Of a DNA stretch of 17,021 bases, positions 71 to 10,737 are shown piece by piece (positions within the stretch are counted from its first letter, which is position 1; each line of letters opens with the position of its first letter). Below the pieces are notes generated by a model. It saw only the letters and a list, made by a program, of their open reading frames with translations, made no database searches and was not told the origin of the DNA. The DNA lies in contig PAYW01000031.1 of assembly GCA_002715425.1 (NCBI GenBank), forward strand, positions 1-17,021. The letters are read 5' to 3'. The stretch comes from Actinomycetota bacterium. GTDB taxonomy: Bacteria > Actinomycetota > Acidimicrobiia > Acidimicrobiales > UBA8592. Made by a program: the position numbers and the translations under genes.

Positions 71-1603
71 ATGCTCAAGAGTAGATGGTGGCACCTTTGG
101 GTGCTCAGCGCAGTTTTTTTGTGCTCATCTACCGTTACTGGAACTTCTGTTATTGATGATCCACCACAAATCATTTTATCGCATCAACAGGGTACATTTG
201 TTTCTGGTGAATTCGAGCTAAACGGCACCTATATCGACGAAGAATACCCGACAACAATTACTTGGGAAATTCACAATGGCACTGCGATTGTCGCTTCTGG
301 CGATTTGATTGCAAGTTTACAACTGCTACCCGTAAATCAATCGTCTCGTGACATGTGGTCATTTGGAGTAAAATTGAATTTCACATCCATGCAACCTTGC
401 TCGTGTATAATCAATGTCGAGGCCATTGATACATCACAACAGAGTTCCACCTCACAATTAATTGTCTTCCATTATGGAGATTCAACAGAACCGTCTCCCG
501 ATTTGCTGCCCCGCGCTATTTTCAACTCAGCCAATCAGGCAAGCAAACTCACCGGCATAGATTCCATTGATGTCTTTGCTATCGATGATCTTGGTGACAC
601 AGACATCCAATGGGCATTAACTGACAATAGTCTAATCGCTCAAAGTTGTGCGTTGTCATGGATTGACAACCCGGTTGTCAATTGGTCCAACCCATTACAA
701 TCAATTTCACACCCACAACTACATCATACCCATCAAATTTCGATAGATACTACAAATTACGATGATGGTTCATATTCACTGCTATTGCGTGCAGTAACAG
801 ATAATTTTGAGCAAGCCTCGGTTTCAGCATGCCTTACGTTAGGCATAGACAACCAGTTTCCAACAGCAATCATCGTCGGCTCTACATCACTAAACGAAAG
901 TGCGGATATTGTGCAGTTTGATGGGAGTTCTAGTTCAGATGGAATTTGGGGTCGTACAGAACTGATCTTCTTATGGGTTCTCGATGGCGATATTGATGCA
1001 CCAGAGGTGGTTAGTGGAAAGGACTTGAGTACATTCACATTCGATGGTAGCCAATCTGGAAATTTTTCGCTGACTCTCACAGTAGTTGATGAGGTTGGAT
1101 TTACCAATACGACAACCCACTCATTTAGTATAGAAAATCAAGCTCCGGTTGCATCCCTACGTGTTGGTGGACAACCGCTGACTGATGGTTCTGAAATTAC
1201 GCTTATTGACAGTCCACAATGGTTGATTGAATGCCGTGATTCCTACGACACACCCAACGACCAAGACGGGTTAATTTGCACATGGTACATTGATGACGAA
1301 CCCAAGATGACTGGTTTGGCTCGTCAGTTGGAAAAACCGGATGACCTATCCCGGCCACATACATTGAGACTATTGGTCACAGACGACGATGGAGCCAATG
1401 ACAGTATCACCGTAACCTTTGGAGTACAAGGAACGCCTTCAGATCCAAATTATGTTACCCATGAAGATTCAAACAATTTCGAAATCATTGCACAAGCTTT
1501 GGTTTTGTTCTTGTCAATTGTCGTACTAGGTTTCACCATACTCTATGTAAATCGAAAATATACAGGTCACTCAGCTCCCATCCCCAAGTGGAAACGTGAT
1601 TGA
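71..1603 (+). CDS. Membrane-anchored surface protein with PKD-like domains
   Basis: A 510-residue secreted and membrane-anchored protein. The N-terminus is a signal peptide (basic residues 3-5, hydrophobic stretch to about 19, likely cleavage near 24-26). Two Ig/PKD-like beta-sandwich repeats can be made out at about 262-355 and 358-452. Each begins after an N-Q-x-P-type linker, and they carry sequences such as FDGSSSSDG and LLVTDDDGANDS. Residues 27-255 look like further beta-rich domains of the same kind but are more divergent. A single membrane helix lies at about 471-493, followed by a short basic cytoplasmic tail ending KWKRD. PKD domains usually mediate extracellular protein or polysaccharide contacts, and no catalytic motif is visible. 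The next gene follows after 12 bases, so it probably heads the four-gene rightward cluster. The topology is well supported; the specific role is unknown. Confidence 0.8.
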   Translation: MLKSRWWHLWVLSAVFLCSSTVTGTSVIDDPPQIILSHQQGTFVSGEFELNGTYIDEEYPTTITWEIHNGTAIVASGDLIASLQLLPVNQSSRDMWSFGVKLNFTSMQPCSCIINVEAIDTSQQSSTSQLIVFHYGDSTEPSPDLLPRAIFNSANQASKLTGIDSIDVFAIDDLGDTDIQWALTDNSLIAQSCALSWIDNPVVNWSNPLQSISHPQLHHTHQISIDTTNYDDGSYSLLLRAVTDNFEQASVSACLTLGIDNQFPTAIIVGSTSLNESADIVQFDGSSSSDGIWGRTELIFLWVLDGDIDAPEVVSGKDLSTFTFDGSQSGNFSLTLTVVDEVGFTNTTTHSFSIENQAPVASLRVGGQPLTDGSEITLIDSPQWLIECRDSYDTPNDQDGLICTWYIDDEPKMTGLARQLEKPDDLSRPHTLRLLVTDDDGANDSITVTFGVQGTPSDPNYVTHEDSNNFEIIAQALVLFLSIVVLGFTILYVNRKYTGHSAPIPKWKRD

Positions 1604-2980: not shown

Positions 2981-4147
2981 ATGTGGGAAAAAATTCTCGA
3001 TGAGCAACGCGGCTCCACACCACCTAGATTGAGCGTTGAGGATGCGACTGAACTGTATGATAATGCAGATTTCAATCTATTACGCAGCGTAGCTCTTGAG
3101 CGTAGAAAACTTGTCAATCCAGGCAATCATGTGACTTACATGATTGATCGAAATGTCAACTATACCAACGTCTGCACAATCAACTGTCAATTTTGCTCCT
3201 TTTATCGTCCACCTGGCCACAAAGAAAACTATACACAAACATTTGAACAAATTTCGCATCGAATTAGTGAATTGGAAGACGTTTCTGGAGTGAGAGTTTT
3301 GATGCAAGGTGGCGTCAATCCCGAATTGCCACTGAGTTGGTATACGGATCTTATGAAGTTCTTGAGGGAAAAGCACCCCTCAATTGCTCTAGACTGCTTT
3401 TCTCCAATTGAAATTGAAGGTATAGCTGAGGTCTGTGGTAAATCCACTCTAGATGTGTTGACAGAACTCAAACATGCAGGTATGCATGGGCTACCTGGTG
3501 GTGGAGCGGAGATGCTTGTTGATGATGTACGACTAGATATATCTCCGAAGAAAGGAAGTGCTGAAAATTGGCTACGTGTGATGCACGAAGCTCAATCGCT
3601 CGGGCTGACAACCTCGGCAACCAATGTGTTTGGTTTTGGAGAAAGCGCGTTCAATCGGGTTCAGCACATGGAAAGAATACGTGATTTACAAGATCAAGCT
3701 TTAGAAAATGGATGGATAGGATTCACTTCGTTTGTTGCTTGGCCTGTACAGTTGGAGACCAATGTATTTGGCCGCCGTAATCGCGGGAAGAACAAATTCG
3801 AGTTGGGTGCAGGTCCTACTGAATACCTTCGTCATGTGGCCATTTCCAGGTTATTTTTTGACAATATCTCTCATATTCAGGGTTCATGGCCAACCATGGG
3901 TTTGGACATCGCACAAATGGCACTACTTGGTGGTGCAGACGACGTGGGTTCAACGATGATGGAAGAAAATGTCGTTTCTGCATCAGGAACTGAGAAGACT
4001 TGCGCTCTCGAATCAGAACTCCAAGAAACCGTCAGACGCGCTGGATTCAAACCTATCAGGCGAGATTCTGACTACAACTTATTGGATACACCTGTTGTTT
4101 CACCGGATGTTACTGCCTTTCCTGCCCCTCCTCCTATGCAGCCTTGA
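2981..4147 (+). CDS. mqnC: Radical SAM cyclic dehypoxanthine futalosine synthase-like protein (MqnC family)
   Basis: A 388-residue radical-SAM enzyme. The [4Fe-4S] cluster motif CxxxCxxC is C65-C69-C72, preceded by the DRNVNYTNVC stretch typical of the MqnC/CofH group. Other matching blocks are LPGGGAEML at 171-179, FGFGES at 217-222, GSWPTMG at 301-307 and STMMEENVVSASG at 324-336. MqnC makes cyclic dehypoxanthinyl futalosine in the futalosine route to menaquinone, and length and motifs fit MqnC better than CofH or MqnE. The ATG follows GAGGGG that overlaps the preceding TGA stop, which suggests translational coupling to pepP. The C-terminal tail (about 370-388) is proline-rich and probably disordered. 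No other menaquinone gene lies in the window, so the pathway assignment rests on family resemblance and on partners encoded elsewhere. Confidence 0.85.
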   Translation: MWEKILDEQRGSTPPRLSVEDATELYDNADFNLLRSVALERRKLVNPGNHVTYMIDRNVNYTNVCTINCQFCSFYRPPGHKENYTQTFEQISHRISELEDVSGVRVLMQGGVNPELPLSWYTDLMKFLREKHPSIALDCFSPIEIEGIAEVCGKSTLDVLTELKHAGMHGLPGGGAEMLVDDVRLDISPKKGSAENWLRVMHEAQSLGLTTSATNVFGFGESAFNRVQHMERIRDLQDQALENGWIGFTSFVAWPVQLETNVFGRRNRGKNKFELGAGPTEYLRHVAISRLFFDNISHIQGSWPTMGLDIAQMALLGGADDVGSTMMEENVVSASGTEKTCALESELQETVRRAGFKPIRRDSDYNLLDTPVVSPDVTAFPAPPPMQP

Positions 4148-4158
4148 TCGGTGTTTAC

Positions 4159-4983
4159 ATGCGACGACGTGCAACTGTACCTGCTCGCGTGAATATTATT
4201 GGAGAGCACACTGATTATGCTGGTGGTTTGGCACTACCGTTTACAATCAACTCTAGATTAGAATTGGAGGCAAATTTTTCTGCTACAGAATATATTGGCG
4301 ATGATACGATTATTGAATTGTGGAAAGAGGCAGGTGGTCCAGTCGCTGAATTGAAACTACAAAGTGACATTCCAATTGGTAAGGGGTTATCGTCATCTGC
4401 AGCATTGTGTATCGCAATCGCCACTTGTGTAACTGGCCAAGTAGGAAATATGCAAACCTGCCTCCTTGCACAGCAGATAGAGCACCGAGTACTTGGAACT
4501 CAATGCGGATTGTTAGATCAAATGGCAATGATATATGCGAAGCAAGGATATGCAACAATGATTGATTTCTCTACCAATTCAATCGAAGAAATAGAAATGC
4601 CACTGACTTGGAAATTCAAATTAATCGATTCTGGAATACATCGAACGCTTGCAGAAACAAACTATGGGCCCAATTTAGCAGAGAAAAATGATCATGTGAT
4701 TGCTGAAAATAATCGTGTTATTCAGGCACAAAGTGCAAGTGCCAAAGAGCTGGGCGAATTGCTTAACCAGTCGCATGAATCACTGATTAAATTGGGTGTC
4801 AGTTTACCCAGTATAGACACAAAGGTGCATGAATTGCAGCAAATGAGTGGTGTACTAGGTGCCAGGATGATGGGTGGTGGATTCGGTGGTATGATTCTAG
4901 TACTCGTAAATGATGATACCGTACTGCCTGAATTTCCACTGGTGGAATCATCTGGTCCTGCGACTTTGGAAATACTCCTCTAA
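4159..4983 (+). CDS. galK: Short galactokinase-like GHMP sugar kinase
   Basis: A 274-residue GHMP-superfamily kinase, probably phosphorylating galactose or a related sugar at C1 with ATP. All three diagnostic motifs are present: the galactokinase signature RVNIIGEHTDYAGG (10-23), the ATP-binding PIGKGLSSSAA (72-82) and the C-terminal GARMMGGGFGG (234-244). The likely catalytic aspartate is D120 in CGLLDQ. It is clearly shorter than typical galactokinases (about 350-390). The gaps are mainly between motifs 1 and 2 and in the helical region before motif 3, but no motif is lost, so it reads as a compact enzyme and not a broken one. ATG 4159 is preferred; TTG 4144, overlapping the mqnC stop, would add five residues. 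Its 3' end overlaps the oppositely oriented glycosidase-nucleotidyltransferase gene by 36 bases. Another hexose or heptose C1 kinase cannot be excluded. Confidence 0.85.
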   Translation: MRRRATVPARVNIIGEHTDYAGGLALPFTINSRLELEANFSATEYIGDDTIIELWKEAGGPVAELKLQSDIPIGKGLSSSAALCIAIATCVTGQVGNMQTCLLAQQIEHRVLGTQCGLLDQMAMIYAKQGYATMIDFSTNSIEEIEMPLTWKFKLIDSGIHRTLAETNYGPNLAEKNDHVIAENNRVIQAQSASAKELGELLNQSHESLIKLGVSLPSIDTKVHELQQMSGVLGARMMGGGFGGMILVLVNDDTVLPEFPLVESSGPATLEILL

Positions 4984-7032
4984 TTTTGACAATCTTTCAG
5001 GTGTTCCCATGTCCCAAAATGGGGTTTCGTCAGTATAGGCATGGATGCGACCTGAATATGCAGGGTATACTGTTTCTTCCCAACTCCATACACCCGATTT
5101 CCCAATGTCATCAATAACCGATTTTCTGACGATACTGGTCCCTGCTTCGTACCCATTGTAGGTCGCTTTTTGATCCACCTTTGAGTATTCAACAACCAAC
5201 CCATTTTGGTGATGTAAATTGAAAGTATCATGGCCTTCAATGACGGTCATAGTGATTGGTAATCCATGTTCAGAATGAGCCTTCAATAATCTCCTGTAAT
5301 TGATTGGATGATAATCGTCACCCCATACCAAAACGAATTCATCGTCAAGGTAATTTCGTGCATTCCAAAGTGCGCCTCCCGTTCCCAATCTCTCACTCTC
5401 TTGAACAAAAGTAAGCTCAATTCCGTCATGTGTAAGATTTTCAAACTGCTCACCCAGGTGGCCGGTTAAGATCAACGCATTTCGACAACCCTGCCCATGG
5501 GCCCAGTCCAAAATATGCATGAGCACAGATTTCCCATCGACAGAGATGAGCGGCTTTGGAATCGTCTGTGTCAATTCACCCAGTCTAGTGCCGAGCCCAC
5601 CAGCGAGAATAACAATCTGGGGTATGCGGGTGTCAGTCACATAATCTGCATACACTTTGCCACTTTCTTTGAGTGTGCGAATCTGTGTAGCATAGTCTAC
5701 ATGATACAACCCAAATCGCTGTGAATACCCCTCGGCCCACTCAAAATTATCCATCAAACTCCAATGGTAGAAACCCCGAATATCAAGTCCATCACGAATG
5801 GCTTGTGATGTAATCCATAGGTGCCTTCTTACATGGTTAGGACGCATATCATCATCATCGTCAGCAACGCCATTTTCTGTCACAAAAATCGGTAGATTAA
5901 GGCTTCGAACCATGTCAAAAGATCGACGCAATCCTTCCGCATACATTGGGTATCTGAAATCTGTACGTTCTTCCCATGGACGTTTAAGTGGATCTAAATC
6001 AACAGTCGTTGGCATAAATGGAGTAGTTAACAAATGAGTATAGTAATTGACACCAATGAAGTCACTACTATTTTTCAGTCCATCTATTTTAGTCGAAAAA
6101 ATGGAAGATGGCGCTCTGAATTTACCTGTTTTGATAGATCGAATCCAACACCGATTAAACATCTCATCGAGTATTTTAGATTGAATCCAATGCAACAGAT
6201 TCCACCTGCGATAAGGGTCGAAAATATTGATGTTTTTGACCAATCCAATTTGAGCATCTGAACCACCAGGCATTGATTTCAGTGCGCGGTAGCACTGAGC
6301 GTGTGCAATCATCATGTTTCGAGATACAGCTTTGGTGAGCTTGAAAGAACGCTTACCAGGGGGGAATTCGCCAAGTACATATCCCATCGATGTAAATACC
6401 GCTGGCTCGTTTATGGTACACCACCACTTAACACGATCACCGAATTCTGCAAACATTTTCTCAGAAAATCTGACCCACAAATTGACATTATCACGTTTTG
6501 TAAATCCACCCATTTCTTCAAACCAAATCGGATGTGAGAAATGGTGAAGGGTAACCATGGGTATGATGTTTTTTTCAAGTAAATCATCAATCATTGTAGA
6601 ATATTGTGAGATTGCATTATCATCCCAATCCCCCATATTTGGTTCGATACGACTCCATTCAATTGAAAATCTGTAGTGTCCAACTCCAAGATTTTCAATC
6701 AGATCGAAGTCATTTTCCCATCGATTCCAATGGTCACATGCTTCACCACTACGTTCCAATTCCGTTGAGTTTTCAAATTGTGTCCAATTATTCTGATTAT
6801 GACCTTCAATCTGATGTGATGCTGTAGCAACACCCCATGCAAATGTACTGGGGAAGTCTACATCAGTTAGATCGATGTTATCCCAATTCAGGTGATTTTC
6901 GGGATTACGGATTTGCAAGTACAGAATCGTCAGTGTATAGCCGGTAATGATCAGTCCGGCCACATACCACCATTCCATGATGTCGGGTTCCACCGACGTG
7001 AGATAATCACTTCCACAATTCACTGTGTCCAT
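4948..7032 (-). CDS. Membrane-anchored GH1 beta-glycosidase fused to sugar-1-phosphate nucleotidyltransferase
   Basis: One uninterrupted frame encodes two enzymes (residues below are counted from the alternative TTG at 7041; subtract 3 for ATG 7032). A membrane helix at about 24-43 has acidic residues before it and arginine after it, predicting both catalytic domains inside the cell. The GH1 domain (about 62-465) carries QIEG at 77-80, the acid/base E212 in TINEP and the nucleophile E389 in VTENG, with SLMDNFEW near 428-435. This is a complete retaining beta-glycosidase of LacS/beta-glucosidase type. After a short linker a nucleotidyltransferase domain (about 474-697) begins with ILAGGLGTRL (478-487), then PKPL, GTGGALWNA, the metal-binding WGDD (573-576) and WDMGTPERL. 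It resembles HddC/RmlA/ManC-type enzymes that make NDP-sugars. The start is ambiguous: ATG 7032 overlaps queD by 13 bases, and ATG 6978 also retains the helix. Each domain call is strong; joint function is inferred. Confidence 0.92.
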   Translation of the reverse strand: MDTVNCGSDYLTSVEPDIMEWWYVAGLIITGYTLTILYLQIRNPENHLNWDNIDLTDVDFPSTFAWGVATASHQIEGHNQNNWTQFENSTELERSGEACDHWNRWENDFDLIENLGVGHYRFSIEWSRIEPNMGDWDDNAISQYSTMIDDLLEKNIIPMVTLHHFSHPIWFEEMGGFTKRDNVNLWVRFSEKMFAEFGDRVKWWCTINEPAVFTSMGYVLGEFPPGKRSFKLTKAVSRNMMIAHAQCYRALKSMPGGSDAQIGLVKNINIFDPYRRWNLLHWIQSKILDEMFNRCWIRSIKTGKFRAPSSIFSTKIDGLKNSSDFIGVNYYTHLLTTPFMPTTVDLDPLKRPWEERTDFRYPMYAEGLRRSFDMVRSLNLPIFVTENGVADDDDDMRPNHVRRHLWITSQAIRDGLDIRGFYHWSLMDNFEWAEGYSQRFGLYHVDYATQIRTLKESGKVYADYVTDTRIPQIVILAGGLGTRLGELTQTIPKPLISVDGKSVLMHILDWAHGQGCRNALILTGHLGEQFENLTHDGIELTFVQESERLGTGGALWNARNYLDDEFVLVWGDDYHPINYRRLLKAHSEHGLPITMTVIEGHDTFNLHHQNGLVVEYSKVDQKATYNGYEAGTSIVRKSVIDDIGKSGVWSWEETVYPAYSGRIHAYTDETPFWDMGTPERLSKLEEYFQSRRTR

Positions 7033-7469
7033 GAAGCCCAAGATTTCGGTGTCTCTCTCACATGCATCGCAACCAATCTCAAACGATTTCCATATGCAGA
7101 CTTGATATGTGGAGCAACTTGATTATACGCCCATTTGGCTAAATTTTCAGCGGTTGGGATGAAATCAACGACTACCGTACGATGATCAGACCCCATCAAT
7201 TCAAGCGCTTCACGGGCAACATCATCTCCTTCGTAAACGATAAAGGCATGATCGACAATGTCGTGTACATGCTCAGTGAGAATCGCGGATACATCACTGA
7301 AATCAATGAGCATACCTTCATCAGAAACACCGGAAACATCTACAACATCACCCTCAATTTCTGCTTCCCATCGATATCGATGACCGTGCATATGTCGACA
7401 CTTGCTTTTGTGATTAGGCACACGGTGACCAGTGTCAGTTTCAACCCATCTTCTAATTCGTGTTGTCAT
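7020..7469 (-). CDS. queD: 6-carboxy-5,6,7,8-tetrahydropterin synthase (QueD)
   Basis: A 149-residue PTPS-family enzyme converting dihydroneopterin triphosphate to 6-carboxytetrahydropterin, the second step towards preQ0. The zinc ligands H15, H28 and H30 and the catalytic C24 are in place in the CxxxHGH motif (24-30). D70/H74 (HDIVDH), E108 (PTAEN) and E139 (HVRET) fit the catalytic and pterin-anchoring positions. It is somewhat longer than E. coli QueD (about 121), with extra residues around 40-53 and 78-98. The ATG overlaps the queC stop as ATGA, and GGAGATG lies just upstream, so start and coupling are well supported. A eukaryotic-type PTPS making pyruvoyl-tetrahydropterin is unlikely in this que cluster. 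The downstream fusion gene overlaps its 3' end. Confidence 0.93.
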   Translation of the reverse strand: MTTRIRRWVETDTGHRVPNHKSKCRHMHGHRYRWEAEIEGDVVDVSGVSDEGMLIDFSDVSAILTEHVHDIVDHAFIVYEGDDVAREALELMGSDHRTVVVDFIPTAENLAKWAYNQVAPHIKSAYGNRLRLVAMHVRETPKSWASWTQ

Positions 7470-8239
7470 GATTTCATCTCCTTATCTAATTGTAGCGCAT
7501 TTTCCAGAACAATTTCCCATGGTTCTGAATAGGCAACAGGATCATTGCGACCGATTGCGTGAAATGCCAAAATTCTCTCCACGTCTGCACCACTGCGCCC
7601 AGATGATCTTCCCTTTGAATCAGGATTGTAGGAAGTATTCGTATTTGCAAAAACAGTATCAAAATCAAGATTCAATGAGTTTAGTGACTGCTCAGCATCT
7701 CTGAGAATCGATTCCTTGTCTCCATCGATATATGGCAAATGGAAGCTCACCTTTTCACTGTCCCAGTTTCCAATTTCAAATGCCATTGAAATGGCATCAT
7801 AAAATTCGGGTCGACAATCTGGATAGATTGTATGATCTCCACTGTGAACACCAAGCGCGATGATGACATTGCAATTCTCTCGCAAAGCAATGGAAAGAGC
7901 ATATCCATACAAAATCGATGAAAATATCGCATTCCTGTTGGGAACAACCGTCTGTTTCATCTGTTCTTCCTCATAGTGACCTTGGGGCACATCAAGGCCC
8001 TCAGTCGTCAATGCAGAGTGAAAAATCCCCATCGCAGAACTCAGGTCTGCAATTTCATGTTCAACATCATAACCGTTCAACGCTAGATATTCGATGTTGT
8101 TTTTTGCTCGATCTAATTCAATTGCATGTTTTTGGCCATAATTGTAGGATAGACAGCTGACCTTGTATCCATCTGCCAATAGACGCATTAGCAAAGCGGT
8201 ACTGTCCATGCCACCTGAAAGTGCCATCACTGCTCGCAT
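7466..8239 (-). CDS. queC: 7-cyano-7-deazaguanine (preQ0) synthase QueC lacking zinc cysteines
   Basis: A 257-residue ATP-dependent enzyme of the PP-loop superfamily that converts 7-carboxy-7-deazaguanine plus ammonia to preQ0. The PP-loop ALSGGMDST is at about 6-14, followed by LSYNYGQKH, VVPNRNAIF and LGVHSGDHTIYPDCRPEF, all QueC hallmarks. ATG 8239 is chosen because it shares an A with the queE stop (TGATG) and places the PP-loop at the usual distance; ATG 8284 would add 15 unneeded residues. The C-terminus still aligns with the family zinc site (SYNPD, then GRSSGRSGADVER), but the four expected cysteines read S203, S213, S216 and D219. The rest of the enzyme looks intact, and it lies between queE and queD with overlaps on both sides, so it is probably functional despite the missing metal site. 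Confidence 0.9.
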   Translation of the reverse strand: MRAVMALSGGMDSTALLMRLLADGYKVSCLSYNYGQKHAIELDRAKNNIEYLALNGYDVEHEIADLSSAMGIFHSALTTEGLDVPQGHYEEEQMKQTVVPNRNAIFSSILYGYALSIALRENCNVIIALGVHSGDHTIYPDCRPEFYDAISMAFEIGNWDSEKVSFHLPYIDGDKESILRDAEQSLNSLNLDFDTVFANTNTSYNPDSKGRSSGRSGADVERILAFHAIGRNDPVAYSEPWEIVLENALQLDKEMKS

Positions 8240-8835
8240 CAGAGTACCCCCATCCATTTGTGTGTCTGTAGACTCAAGCGCCATCCTGGACTATTTTTGA
8301 CCAAACGTTCGACAGTCTGAAAAGAGTGTCCATTTTCTTCGACAGAGTCTGTATCTATGTAGCAAGGCTGCAAGTATAGATGTGTAAATCCGTTGATTAA
8401 TTCATCATACATTGACAATTCTTGACCACAGTAAACAATTTTCAATTCATCACCATGACGTTGCTTGATTGTGAGATTAGGATACAGTTGGTCTTTGGGT
8501 GACACACAAATCCAATCAATAATGGGGTCAACCGGAATCGTCCCATTGGTTTCGATAGACAAACTGATTCCATGTTTCTTCAGTGCTGAACCGATTGTTG
8601 ATAGATCTTGCAATGCAGGTTCCCCGCCGGTGAAAATAACACGCTTGCAGTCGTAGGACAACACCTCTTCGAGGATTGATTCAAGTGATCTTTCTTCATA
8701 TTTCAAAAAATCAGTATCGCACCATTCACAGCGCAAATTGCAATTACCAAACCGCACAAAAACATGTGGGATGCCAGAATGGAATCCTTCTCCTTGCACG
8801 GAGTGAAATATTTCGACAATCGGATAACTGATCAT
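8239..8835 (-). CDS. queE: 7-carboxy-7-deazaguanine synthase (QueE, radical SAM)
   Basis: A 198-residue radical-SAM enzyme that rearranges 6-carboxytetrahydropterin to 7-carboxy-7-deazaguanine, the substrate of QueC. The N-terminus EIFHSVQGEG (8-17) is a QueE hallmark. The cluster motif CxxxCxxC is C32-C36-C39, followed by TGGEP (69-73) for SAM binding. SIETNGT near 93-99, VSPK near 111-114 and the C-terminal QTHKWMGV are also family-typical. Length is normal for the compact archaeal/bacterial form. The start is fixed by AGGTGAT three bases before ATG, and the stop shares a base with the queC ATG. This places queE, queC and queD in one translationally coupled unit. Confidence 0.95.
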   Translation of the reverse strand: MISYPIVEIFHSVQGEGFHSGIPHVFVRFGNCNLRCEWCDTDFLKYEERSLESILEEVLSYDCKRVIFTGGEPALQDLSTIGSALKKHGISLSIETNGTIPVDPIIDWICVSPKDQLYPNLTIKQRHGDELKIVYCGQELSMYDELINGFTHLYLQPCYIDTDSVEENGHSFQTVERLVKNSPGWRLSLQTHKWMGVL

Positions 8836-8838
8836 GAT

Positions 8839-8845
8839 ATCACCT
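8839..8845 (-). promoter_or_regulatory. Shine-Dalgarno site of queE containing the protease stop codon
   Basis: On the minus strand AGGTGAT stands three bases before the queE ATG. The preceding protease gene ends in AGG-TGA, so its last arginine codon and stop are themselves the ribosome-binding site. This implies coupled termination and re-initiation. Confidence 0.75.
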
Positions 8846-10162
8846 ATTACAACCCAAGATAGGGGCTACTTGTGAGTCAAATGTGCAAATCCAATCGGTA
8901 TGGCTAGAGACGAGTGTATTGAAGGCAACATCGCCGTAATTGGCAGTGAGGCTGCCATGTGCAGTCAGACCAATCACTGTCCATTGGCCATTCAGATAGA
9001 TGTAGGTCGGACCTCCAGAATCACCCTGAACAGAGGTACCTTCCATGGATAATGGGGACGCATCACTGTTCCCAGATCCAGCATAAGCGTAACTTCCTTG
9101 TTGTAACGTGGATGTATTGCCGGCTGCTAATGAGTTGTGCTTCTCTGAAGGGCTATCAAAATCATAGACGATGAATCCACCATGAAAATGGTGGTCACCA
9201 TTGTATTCGTGCGGTGGGACTAAATCACTCACAATACGGTCAAGGACATTAGACCATGCGCGTCTTTGTGTATATTCACCGTCACCATCATCTAAGCAGA
9301 AATCAGAACATTCAGAATAGCCTAAATCATATGCACCATAGCCTGCAGTGAATATAATAGAACCAATTTGCAAACTGTCAGTAGTCGATGTATTGTCCCA
9401 AATTGCGACACTTGCAATTTCGGTATCGATGGACTCACTCAACTTGATTAGTGCAATGTCGACACCTGATTCCATGATTTCGGAATCGCCTTCCCAACCA
9501 GGATGAATGTAGATATTTGAGACAGGATAAGCTGCATCGAAATGCCCCGAACCAACATCAACACCGAGGTAGACACCAGTTTCACTGGCAACAAGTTCGT
9601 CAACAACGTGAGCAGCGGTCAATACCCATTTTTCGGATATTATCACACCACTGCCAGACAAGTATTGCCCCCCATTATCCTCTCCATAGATGTTGACTGT
9701 TGATGAAAAATCAGGATAGTCTTTGTCAATCGTGAATGGGAATCTATTGGCTCCGAGATCTTCGTATAAACCAGCATCGACATCGTGACGAAATCCAAAC
9801 TCAGGCGTTTCCTCGAGCTCAAAAATCTCACCTAAACTGGCAAACAATACAGCGATGAGTAACACGAAGGCTACGATTACAGCAAAGCCAGCGATGCCGA
9901 TACCAATCCATACATTACGGCTAATTCGTGATCGTTTTGGGGATGTTTGGTAGTAAATCATCCCCGGTTGCGCAAATTGATTTGTTTGTGGGTATGCCTG
10001 TATTGTCGTATGTTGTACAGGTGCAACATTTGGGGCCAAGGGTTGTGTTTGCTGGGGATTGACAAAATCCGGATAGTATTGCCTTGTGTAGAATAGCGCC
10101 TGTTCTTGTGTATATCCTTGGCCAATCAGTGAGTTGTAATACTCAATATCTGCTGGGCCCAT
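8840..10162 (-). CDS. Membrane-anchored chymotrypsin-fold (S1) serine protease with cytoplasmic N-terminal module
   Basis: A 440-residue protein in three parts. Residues 1-33 form a short amphipathic, aromatic module (GYTQEQALFYTRQYYPDF), followed by a Pro/Gln-rich linker to about 75. A basic patch (KRSR, 76-79) precedes one membrane helix (about 84-110), predicting N-inside, C-outside topology. The outer part (about 140-440) is an S1 peptidase with the full triad: H185 in LTAAHVV, D235 in VDIALIKL and S382 in GDSGGP. The position equivalent to chymotrypsin residue 189 is T376, so trypsin-like Arg/Lys preference is not expected. C285/C289 and C426/C438 may form disulfides. It lies between folE and queE, 14 bases after folE with AGGTGT before its ATG. 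Its substrate is unknown, and any link to deazaguanine synthesis is only positional. Confidence 0.88.
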   Translation of the reverse strand: MGPADIEYYNSLIGQGYTQEQALFYTRQYYPDFVNPQQTQPLAPNVAPVQHTTIQAYPQTNQFAQPGMIYYQTSPKRSRISRNVWIGIGIAGFAVIVAFVLLIAVLFASLGEIFELEETPEFGFRHDVDAGLYEDLGANRFPFTIDKDYPDFSSTVNIYGEDNGGQYLSGSGVIISEKWVLTAAHVVDELVASETGVYLGVDVGSGHFDAAYPVSNIYIHPGWEGDSEIMESGVDIALIKLSESIDTEIASVAIWDNTSTTDSLQIGSIIFTAGYGAYDLGYSECSDFCLDDGDGEYTQRRAWSNVLDRIVSDLVPPHEYNGDHHFHGGFIVYDFDSPSEKHNSLAAGNTSTLQQGSYAYAGSGNSDASPLSMEGTSVQGDSGGPTYIYLNGQWTVIGLTAHGSLTANYGDVAFNTLVSSHTDWICTFDSQVAPILGCNR

Positions 10163-10176
10163 GTTAACACCTACAT

Positions 10177-10737
10177 TTACTGTCGAATCAACTGCATTAA
10201 TTCGGATCGTGCTTCAGCTTTGTCAAAGAATACACCGCGCATTGCAGAAGTGGTCATCACTGCATTCTGCTTCATTACACCACGACATTGCATACATCCG
10301 TGGGATGCCTCTACAATAACGGCACACCCCAGAGGTGAAAGGTGCTCTTCCAAATCGTCAGCGACACCCTTTGTAATTCGCTCTTGATTTTGTAAACGCC
10401 GAGCGTGCATGTCTACGATTCTTGCCAATTTGCTGATGCCAACAATTCTGTCAACCGGGATATATCCAACATGAGCGACTCCTTTGAATGGCTGAAGGTG
10501 GTGTTCGCATGTACTGTGGAATTCGATATCCTTCAGTAGAACGATACCATCGTATCCCTCAGCGTTGAATGTTGAATCTAACACCTCTGATGCTGACTCA
10601 TTGTATCCAGAAAAAATCTCGCTCCAAGAATTGATAACTCGTTTGGGTGTATCGATGAGTCCTTCACGATTTGCATCACCCTCAATATACTCTAGGAGTT
10701 TCCTAACCGATTCTTTTGCCTCTTCAACTGTGACCAT
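10177..10737 (-). CDS. folE: GTP cyclohydrolase I, type IA (FolE)
   Basis: A 186-residue enzyme that opens GTP to 7,8-dihydroneopterin triphosphate, the substrate of QueD. The zinc ligands are visible as C77 and H80 in STCEHHLQPF and C148 in SHGCMQCRGV. The family blocks REGLIDTPKRV (24-34), GYIPVDRIVGISKLARIVDMHARR across 91-114, QERIT (118-122) and the C-terminal MTTSAMRGVF are all present. The length equals that of bacterial FolE. Many archaea use FolE2/MptA instead, so a bacterial-type IA enzyme is notable. Its place as second gene behind the small RHH-like protein and upstream of queE/C/D points to preQ0/archaeosine supply. The ATG directly follows the stop of the upstream small gene, with GGGGATGAT as a likely ribosome-binding site. 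Confidence 0.95.
   Translation of the reverse strand: MVTVEEAKESVRKLLEYIEGDANREGLIDTPKRVINSWSEIFSGYNESASEVLDSTFNAEGYDGIVLLKDIEFHSTCEHHLQPFKGVAHVGYIPVDRIVGISKLARIVDMHARRLQNQERITKGVADDLEEHLSPLGCAVIVEASHGCMQCRGVMKQNAVMTTSAMRGVFFDKAEARSELMQLIRQ

What the first reader, a model, noticed from the sequence alone, without database searches (positions are those of the whole stretch)
4948..7032. GH1 glycosidase fused to a sugar nucleotidyltransferase with a membrane anchor
One frame carries a complete retaining beta-glycosidase (both catalytic glutamates present) followed by a complete nucleotidyltransferase (GGLGTRL, WGDD, WDMGTP), after a single membrane helix whose flanking charges place both domains in the cytoplasm. 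A hydrolase joined to an NDP-sugar-forming enzyme is a combination I do not know from characterised proteins. It suggests that a sugar freed from a glycoside at the inner membrane face is passed, after C1 phosphorylation, into NDP-sugar for glycan or glycolipid synthesis. Alternatively the GH1 domain may act as a transglycosylase.
Basis: partly seen in the sequence, partly recalled or inferred. Interest (0 to 1): 0.85.

Follow-up and report, generated by a model that had tools for sequence, protein, structure and literature searches.

The report
Glycosidase fused to sugar-nucleotide enzyme
Some ocean archaea carry one protein that joins a sugar-releasing enzyme to an enzyme that makes activated sugars, next to a galactose-kinase-like gene, which suggests a compact route for recycling galactose into building blocks.

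Summary
The fusion is real and conserved. ORF 4948-7032 (-) encodes a membrane helix, a GH1 domain and a sugar-1-phosphate nucleotidyltransferase (NTP) domain. Both domains occur full-length in 56 listed protein clusters and in one frame in 30 of 30 loci L001-L030; one copy lies on a 2.06-Mb contig, so it is no assembly error. A galactokinase-like gene converges on its 3' end. In 193 genomes of the order, NTP is found in 55, the kinase in 56, both in 54; GH1 and NTP share a frame at 35 of 56 NTP places. GalT is found in 1 of 193 genomes, one without NTP or kinase. Four bacterial genomes carry GH1, NTP and galactokinase as neighbouring separate genes; the NTP tested (L053) is GlmU-like, unlike the archaeal one. 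Best reading: glycoside to galactose to galactose-1-phosphate to NDP-galactose, a salvage route without GalT and with its glycosidase built in. The nearest single-domain solved GH1 is a membrane-bound alkyl-glucoside hydrolase, hinting at a glycolipid substrate. Sugar, nucleotide and substrate are untested.

The parts
4948..7032 (-). fusion gene: membrane helix + GH1 + sugar-1-phosphate nucleotidyltransferase, 694 aa (probable true start at 6978, 676 aa)
6910..6966 (-). single hydrophobic helix (residues 23-41), predicted N-out/C-in
   Evidence: hydropathy and flanking charges; helix 21-42 in the model
5635..6858 (-). GH1 domain (Pfam residues 59-466); acid/base E209 at 6406-6408, nucleophile E386 at 5875-5877
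   Evidence: roles of the two glutamates recalled from GH1 enzymes
4951..5622 (-). nucleotidyltransferase domain (residues 471-694): GGLGTRL 5581-5601, WGDD 5314-5325, WDMGTP 4999-5016
4144..4983 (+). short galactokinase-like GHMP kinase (279 aa; probable start ATG 4159), convergent, 3' end overlapping the fusion gene by 36 nt
   Evidence: conserved neighbour

Best explanation
A salvage module that works without the Leloir enzyme GalT. The GH1 domain hydrolyses a beta-galactoside (or related beta-glycoside) on the cytoplasmic side, the convergent galactokinase-like enzyme makes the sugar-1-phosphate, and the fused NTP domain couples it to an NTP to give an NDP-sugar, most likely NDP-galactose, for glycan or glycolipid synthesis. 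Shown: the domain architecture, its conservation, the kinase pairing, no GalT found in archaeal carriers, and the bacterial gene sets. Inferred: every reaction step, the sugar, the nucleotide and the direction of flux. The anchor and the nearest solved relative make a glycolipid a possible source of the sugar; this is the weakest step.
For: GH1 with intact catalytic residues fused to an intact NTP domain in 48 of 48 fused rows examined. NTP and kinase co-occur in 54 genomes (NTP 55, kinase 56, of 193; Fisher p 2.7e-44, not corrected for shared ancestry) and lie convergent on one contig at 53 of 56 NTP places. GH1 is in 48 of 55 NTP genomes against 26 of 138 without NTP. Control: 14 loci with more distant NTP paralogues (L097-L110) show neither kinase nor GH1 in 3.2-3.7 kb. 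The kinase matches galactokinases best, with the galactose-binding signature PF10509. GalT (PF01087) in 1 of 193 genomes, one without NTP or kinase; control rang in 6 of 14. Strict GalE in 0 of 193; control rang in 11 of 14, over cut-off in 8. Four bacterial genomes have GH1, NTP and galactokinase side by side on one strand (L045, L051, L053, L140), while 26 loci with weaker NTP matches (L142-L167) show no GH1 or kinase. The bacterial NTP of L053 is nearest GlmU (145 bits), the archaeal one nearest a heptose-pathway NTP (87 bits), so two NTP subfamilies accompany this GH1. Nearest single-domain solved GH1: 1vff of P. horikoshii, described as membrane-associated and active on long-alkyl glucosides (PMC4687101, passages).
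Against: GH1 of this family occurs without NTP in 26 genomes (25 without NTP and kinase), and 7 of 55 NTP genomes show no GH1 match (completeness unknown), so GH1 is not strictly bound to the pathway. In bacteria, L048 has the GH1 without NTP or kinase in its 9.6-kb locus, and L141 has the NTP without the others in 3.7 kb. The kinase is short (279 aa) and below the NCBIfam galactokinase cut-offs. The archaeal NTP's nearest solved relatives include guanylyltransferases, while galactose salvage is usually written with UTP. G200 has the kinase without an adjacent NTP. GalT is missing from nearly the whole sampled order, so its absence is not specific to carriers. G404 has a weak GalT match over the cut-off.
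Confidence: 0.6

Rival explanations
1. The same salvage route but for another sugar or nucleotide, for example GDP activation, as in the heptose pair HddA/HddC or the fucose enzyme FKP (both recalled).
For: With the family profile the best solved matches are a 6-deoxy-D-mannoheptose pathway protein (115 bits; taken as HddC, recalled), then a glucose-1-phosphate cytidylyltransferase (66) and mannose-1-phosphate guanylyltransferases (66, 58). The best NCBIfam match of the NTP part is mannose-1-phosphate guanylyltransferase, 95 bits against a cut-off of 440. E545 is kept in 48 of 48 fused rows; counted by eye from the LGT motif, the printed GlmU rows have Gln there and the HddC-like and guanylyltransferase rows have Glu.
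Against: The kinase has the galactose-binding signature and its best solved matches are galactokinases. The Glu is not decisive: I recall that the UTP enzyme MurU also has it (not checked).
Confidence: 0.2
2. The GH1 domain is a transglycosylase on glycolipids, as in plant SFR2, and the NTP domain serves the same lipid pathway separately.
For: GH1 with a membrane helix; SFR2 is described as moving galactose between galactolipids (PMC8065580, passages).
Against: No SFR2 sequence was compared here. A pure transglycosylase would free no sugar for the kinase conserved next door.
Confidence: 0.08
3. The domains are fused for co-expression or placement and act in unrelated reactions; GH1 is an ordinary catabolic beta-glucosidase.
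For: Separate existence of both parts in related genomes. A paper on North Sea MAGs describes the single GH1 of its MGIIa genomes as a beta-glucosidase that processes poly- and oligosaccharides (PMC6864105, passages).
Against: Gene linkage in bacteria with a different NTP subfamily; co-occurrence of GH1 with NTP and kinase.
Confidence: 0.1

Closest known systems
Pyrococcus horikoshii membrane-bound beta-glycosidase BGPh (GH1, PDB 1vff)
   Same: Nearest single-domain solved sequence and top structural match; archaeal and membrane-associated (PMC4687101, passages)
   Different: Single domain, no NTP domain; said to meet the membrane through a hydrophobic surface rather than a helix
Isselbacher (pyrophosphorylase) route of galactose salvage with UDP-sugar pyrophosphorylase
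   Same: Galactokinase followed by direct nucleotidylation without GalT, as described for plants (PMC6329318, passages)
   Different: No glycosidase attached there (recalled); whether this NTP belongs to the USP family was not tested
HddA/HddC and FKP (GHMP kinase + guanylyltransferase pairs, recalled)
   Same: GHMP kinase paired with a nucleotidyltransferase; the archaeal NTP's best solved match is a heptose-pathway NTP
   Different: Kinase here is galactokinase-like; a glycosidase is attached. FKP was not compared
SFR2/GGGT and Chlamydomonas CrGH, GH1 enzymes linked to galactolipids
   Same: GH1 enzymes described in galactolipid turnover (PMC8065580, passages)
   Different: Eukaryotic; no sequence comparison was made here

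Membership tests
Glycoside hydrolase family 1 | family profile over the full barrel | tested here: met
   PF00232, 310 bits, residues 59-466; Foldseek top match 1vff
Glycoside hydrolase family 1 | two catalytic glutamates (TxNEP, TENG; roles recalled) | tested here: met
   48 of 48 fused rows
Glycoside hydrolase family 1 | beta-glycosidase activity | not testable with these tools
   no assay
Sugar-1-phosphate nucleotidyltransferase | family profile and signature/metal residues (roles recalled) | tested here: met
   PF00483 64 bits over a cut-off of 21.2, profile positions 3-139 of 245; R483, K493, D572, D573, D674 in 48 of 48 fused rows
HddC (NF049965) | curated equivalog cut-off 300 bits | tested here: not met
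   68.7 bits
Galactokinase (4144-4983) | galactose-binding signature PF10509 and GHMP domains | tested here: met
   41.6, 48.5 and 33.5 bits, all over cut-off
Galactokinase (4144-4983) | NCBIfam galactokinase equivalog cut-offs | tested here: not met
   172.6 against 443 and 140.9 against 226.65 bits, the other three also below
Leloir pathway | GalT present | tested here: not met
   1 of 193 genomes, and that one lacks NTP and kinase
SFR2/GGGT | orthology and transferase activity | not tested
   no SFR2 sequence was obtained

The most novel reading that the evidence does not exclude
An enzyme that recycles galactolipid (or other beta-glycolipid) head groups into NDP-sugar at the membrane: the GH1 that was read as a polysaccharide-processing beta-glucosidase in Marine Group II archaea would instead be the entry step of head-group salvage, perhaps from phytoplankton galactolipids.
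Probability: 0.3. Interest if true: 0.8.

Novelty: new variant of a known kind. Interest (0 to 1): 0.62.

Why it matters
Marine Group II archaea lack cultured isolates and how far they use carbohydrates is unsettled (PMC6336850, PMC6864105; abstract starts and passages). The GH1 of MGIIa has been read as a catabolic beta-glucosidase (PMC6864105). The fusion and the kinase pairing point instead to nucleotide-sugar salvage, name the partner enzyme, and give a direct in vitro test with two proteins and three activities.

Tried and rejected
Assembly error or frameshift near 5630: rejected, since 30 of 30 loci read through and one copy lies on a 2.06-Mb contig. Operon logic with the queuosine genes upstream: not pursued; the neighbours in L174 differ by eye. 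Phage origin: 94 phage-collection records matched, none over 80% of the query, all under 60% identity; the 10 listed rows cover the GH1 part, and two of them are bacterial records. Nucleotide choice from a single residue: left open. Galactolipid clues in bacterial loci (FadL-like genes in L045 and L053, a START-like and a melibiase-like gene in L051) come from single loci without counts or controls, so they are not used as evidence. Papers: no paper held all the terms, and the listings show no title on such a fusion; the library holds open-access papers only, so this is no proof that nothing is in print. The second structure job, pdb_via and the third protein search were not used; the kinase was not searched against the protein collection.

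Full report
What is there. ORF 4948-7032 on the - strand encodes 694 residues: a hydrophobic helix (residues 23-41), a GH1 domain (59-466) and a nucleotidyltransferase (NTP) domain (471-694), with only a few residues between the last two. The predicted model has mean pLDDT 85 and pTM 0.67, and its best solved match is the GH1 enzyme 1vff; the 50 rows printed there are all beta-glycosidases, and the relative placing of the two domains was not judged. P0004-P0017 start at or near residue 19 here, so 6978 is the likelier start, although P0001-P0003 share the longer one.

It is conserved. The homologue search scored 8000 candidates and listed 120 of 7936 matches; rows P0001-P0056 cover 93-100% of the query and carry both Pfam domains. 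L001-L030 are all fused (30 of 30); 29 of 30 also hold the kinase gene (in L003 only in part), and L028 ends at a contig edge. L015 and L017 come from one assembly. In a GH1 tree of 62 rows all 31 fused rows and L033 form one clade (96/95). L033 is cut off inside GH1 by its contig end and was labelled as not fused, so the tool's own tally asks for two changes; the root is a midpoint. The order is taken as Poseidoniales from the record titles.

The kinase. A convergent gene at 4144-4983 (likely start 4159) is a compact galactokinase-like GHMP kinase: over the Pfam cut-offs, best solved matches galactokinases, but below the NCBIfam galactokinase cut-offs. In 193 genomes of the order the NTP domain is found in 55, the kinase in 56, and both in 54. 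The three exceptions: G170 (NTP match cut at a contig end), G140 (kinase match cut at a contig end), and G200, which has the kinase beside another gene. At 53 of 56 NTP places the kinase match lies convergent on the same contig, at 51 of them within 27 nt; G098 and G207 show larger gaps (264 and 519 nt between the matches), G055 and G193 have it on another contig, and G170 ends at its contig edge. As a control, 14 loci with more distant NTP paralogues (L097-L110) show no kinase or GH1 match.

Fused and unfused. 35 of 56 NTP places (34 genomes) share the GH1 frame; 21 do not. Of the 21, G166 sits near a contig end and is unclear, G173 and G181 carry one TGA inside the match, and G116 has a separate NTP and also a GH1 whose contig end shows the first 34 residues of an NTP domain. 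In the three unfused genomes first read in detail (L088-L090), NTP and kinase form the same tail-to-tail pair, and the GH1 was found elsewhere in the same genomes (L034, L038, L044). The pair therefore exists without the fusion, and the simplest history is that GH1 was joined to it once; this direction was not tested.

Pathway context. GalT (PF01087) is found in 1 of 193 genomes, G205, which has neither NTP nor kinase, and in none of 6 further archaeal genomes. The strict GalE family is found in 0 of 193 at E 1e-60, with at most 10 candidates scored per genome in the rows shown, so distant epimerases may exist. If there is indeed no epimerase, the product would go into glycan synthesis rather than into glycolysis (inference). 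One survey mentions a galactose permease subunit in MGIIa and basal MGIIb (PMC6336850, passages), and another reports a single GH1 in its MGIIa genomes and no described GH in MGIIb (PMC6864105, passages).

Bacteria. L045, L051, L053 and L140 (from G404) have GH1, NTP and galactokinase as separate neighbouring genes on one strand; a hydrophobic N-terminal stretch is seen by eye in the first three GH1s. In the phylum sample of 235 genomes 69 matched the bacterial NTP, many of them probably GlmU itself (inference); 4 matched with E below 1e-60, and 3 of these 4 carry the trio, while L141 shows no GH1 or kinase in its 3.7 kb; L142-L167 (26 loci) show neither. L048, in the same GH1 group, has no NTP or kinase in its locus. 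GalT was not found in G022-G024; G404 has a weak match over the cut-off. The bacterial NTP tested (L053) is nearest GlmU, 145 bits, with the heptose-pathway protein at 23; the archaeal one is nearest that protein at 87 bits, with GlmU at 47. The same kinds of enzyme thus accompany this GH1 with two different NTP subfamilies, which I count as the strongest functional argument. The GH1s of L045, L048, L051 and L053 join the archaeal ones at 98/87 on a short branch of a midpoint-rooted tree, so the linkage may not be fully independent.

Membrane and lipid. By eye the anchor is shared with unfused archaeal relatives and with bacterial ones, but it is absent in 26 of 48 fused rows, and 4 have a longer membrane region instead. 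The nearest single-domain solved GH1 is described as membrane-associated and active on long-alkyl glucosides (PMC4687101, passages). This makes a lipid substrate possible, not shown.

Limits. The completeness of the genomes is not given, those with titles are metagenome-assembled, they are related to each other, and the Fisher values overstate independence. No reaction was tested.

Noticed in passing
P0024, P0032, P0055, P0056, P0088; L024: Relatives with a longer N-terminal membrane region before GH1: MauE over the Pfam cut-off in P0055, under it in P0088, precomputed for P0056, no match in P0024; P0032 and L024 are alike by eye. P0088 has it without an NTP domain.
   Followed up: partly
window 7020-10737 (-): QueD-, QueC- and QueE-like genes, a trypsin-like protease with a hydrophobic stretch, and FolE lie in a row on the same strand just upstream of the fusion gene.
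   Followed up: no
window 2981-4147 (+): A CofH/MqnC-type radical SAM enzyme, closest to cyclic dehypoxanthinyl futalosine synthase (402 bits) but under its cut-off of 428.
   Followed up: no
window 71-1603 (+): 510-aa protein with a signal-like start and a C-terminal hydrophobic stretch by eye, no Pfam match.
   Followed up: no
L051, L053, L045: A START-like (Polyketide_cyc) gene lies after the galactokinase on the other strand in L051, with a similar gene by eye in L053; L051 also has melibiase-like and RPE65-like genes, and L053 and L045 have FadL-like genes.
   Followed up: partly
G154 contigs C6 and C23; L015 and L017: One genome of the sample holds two copies of the fusion and kinase on two contigs, and L015 and L017 likewise come from one assembly; possibly two strains in one bin.
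   Followed up: no
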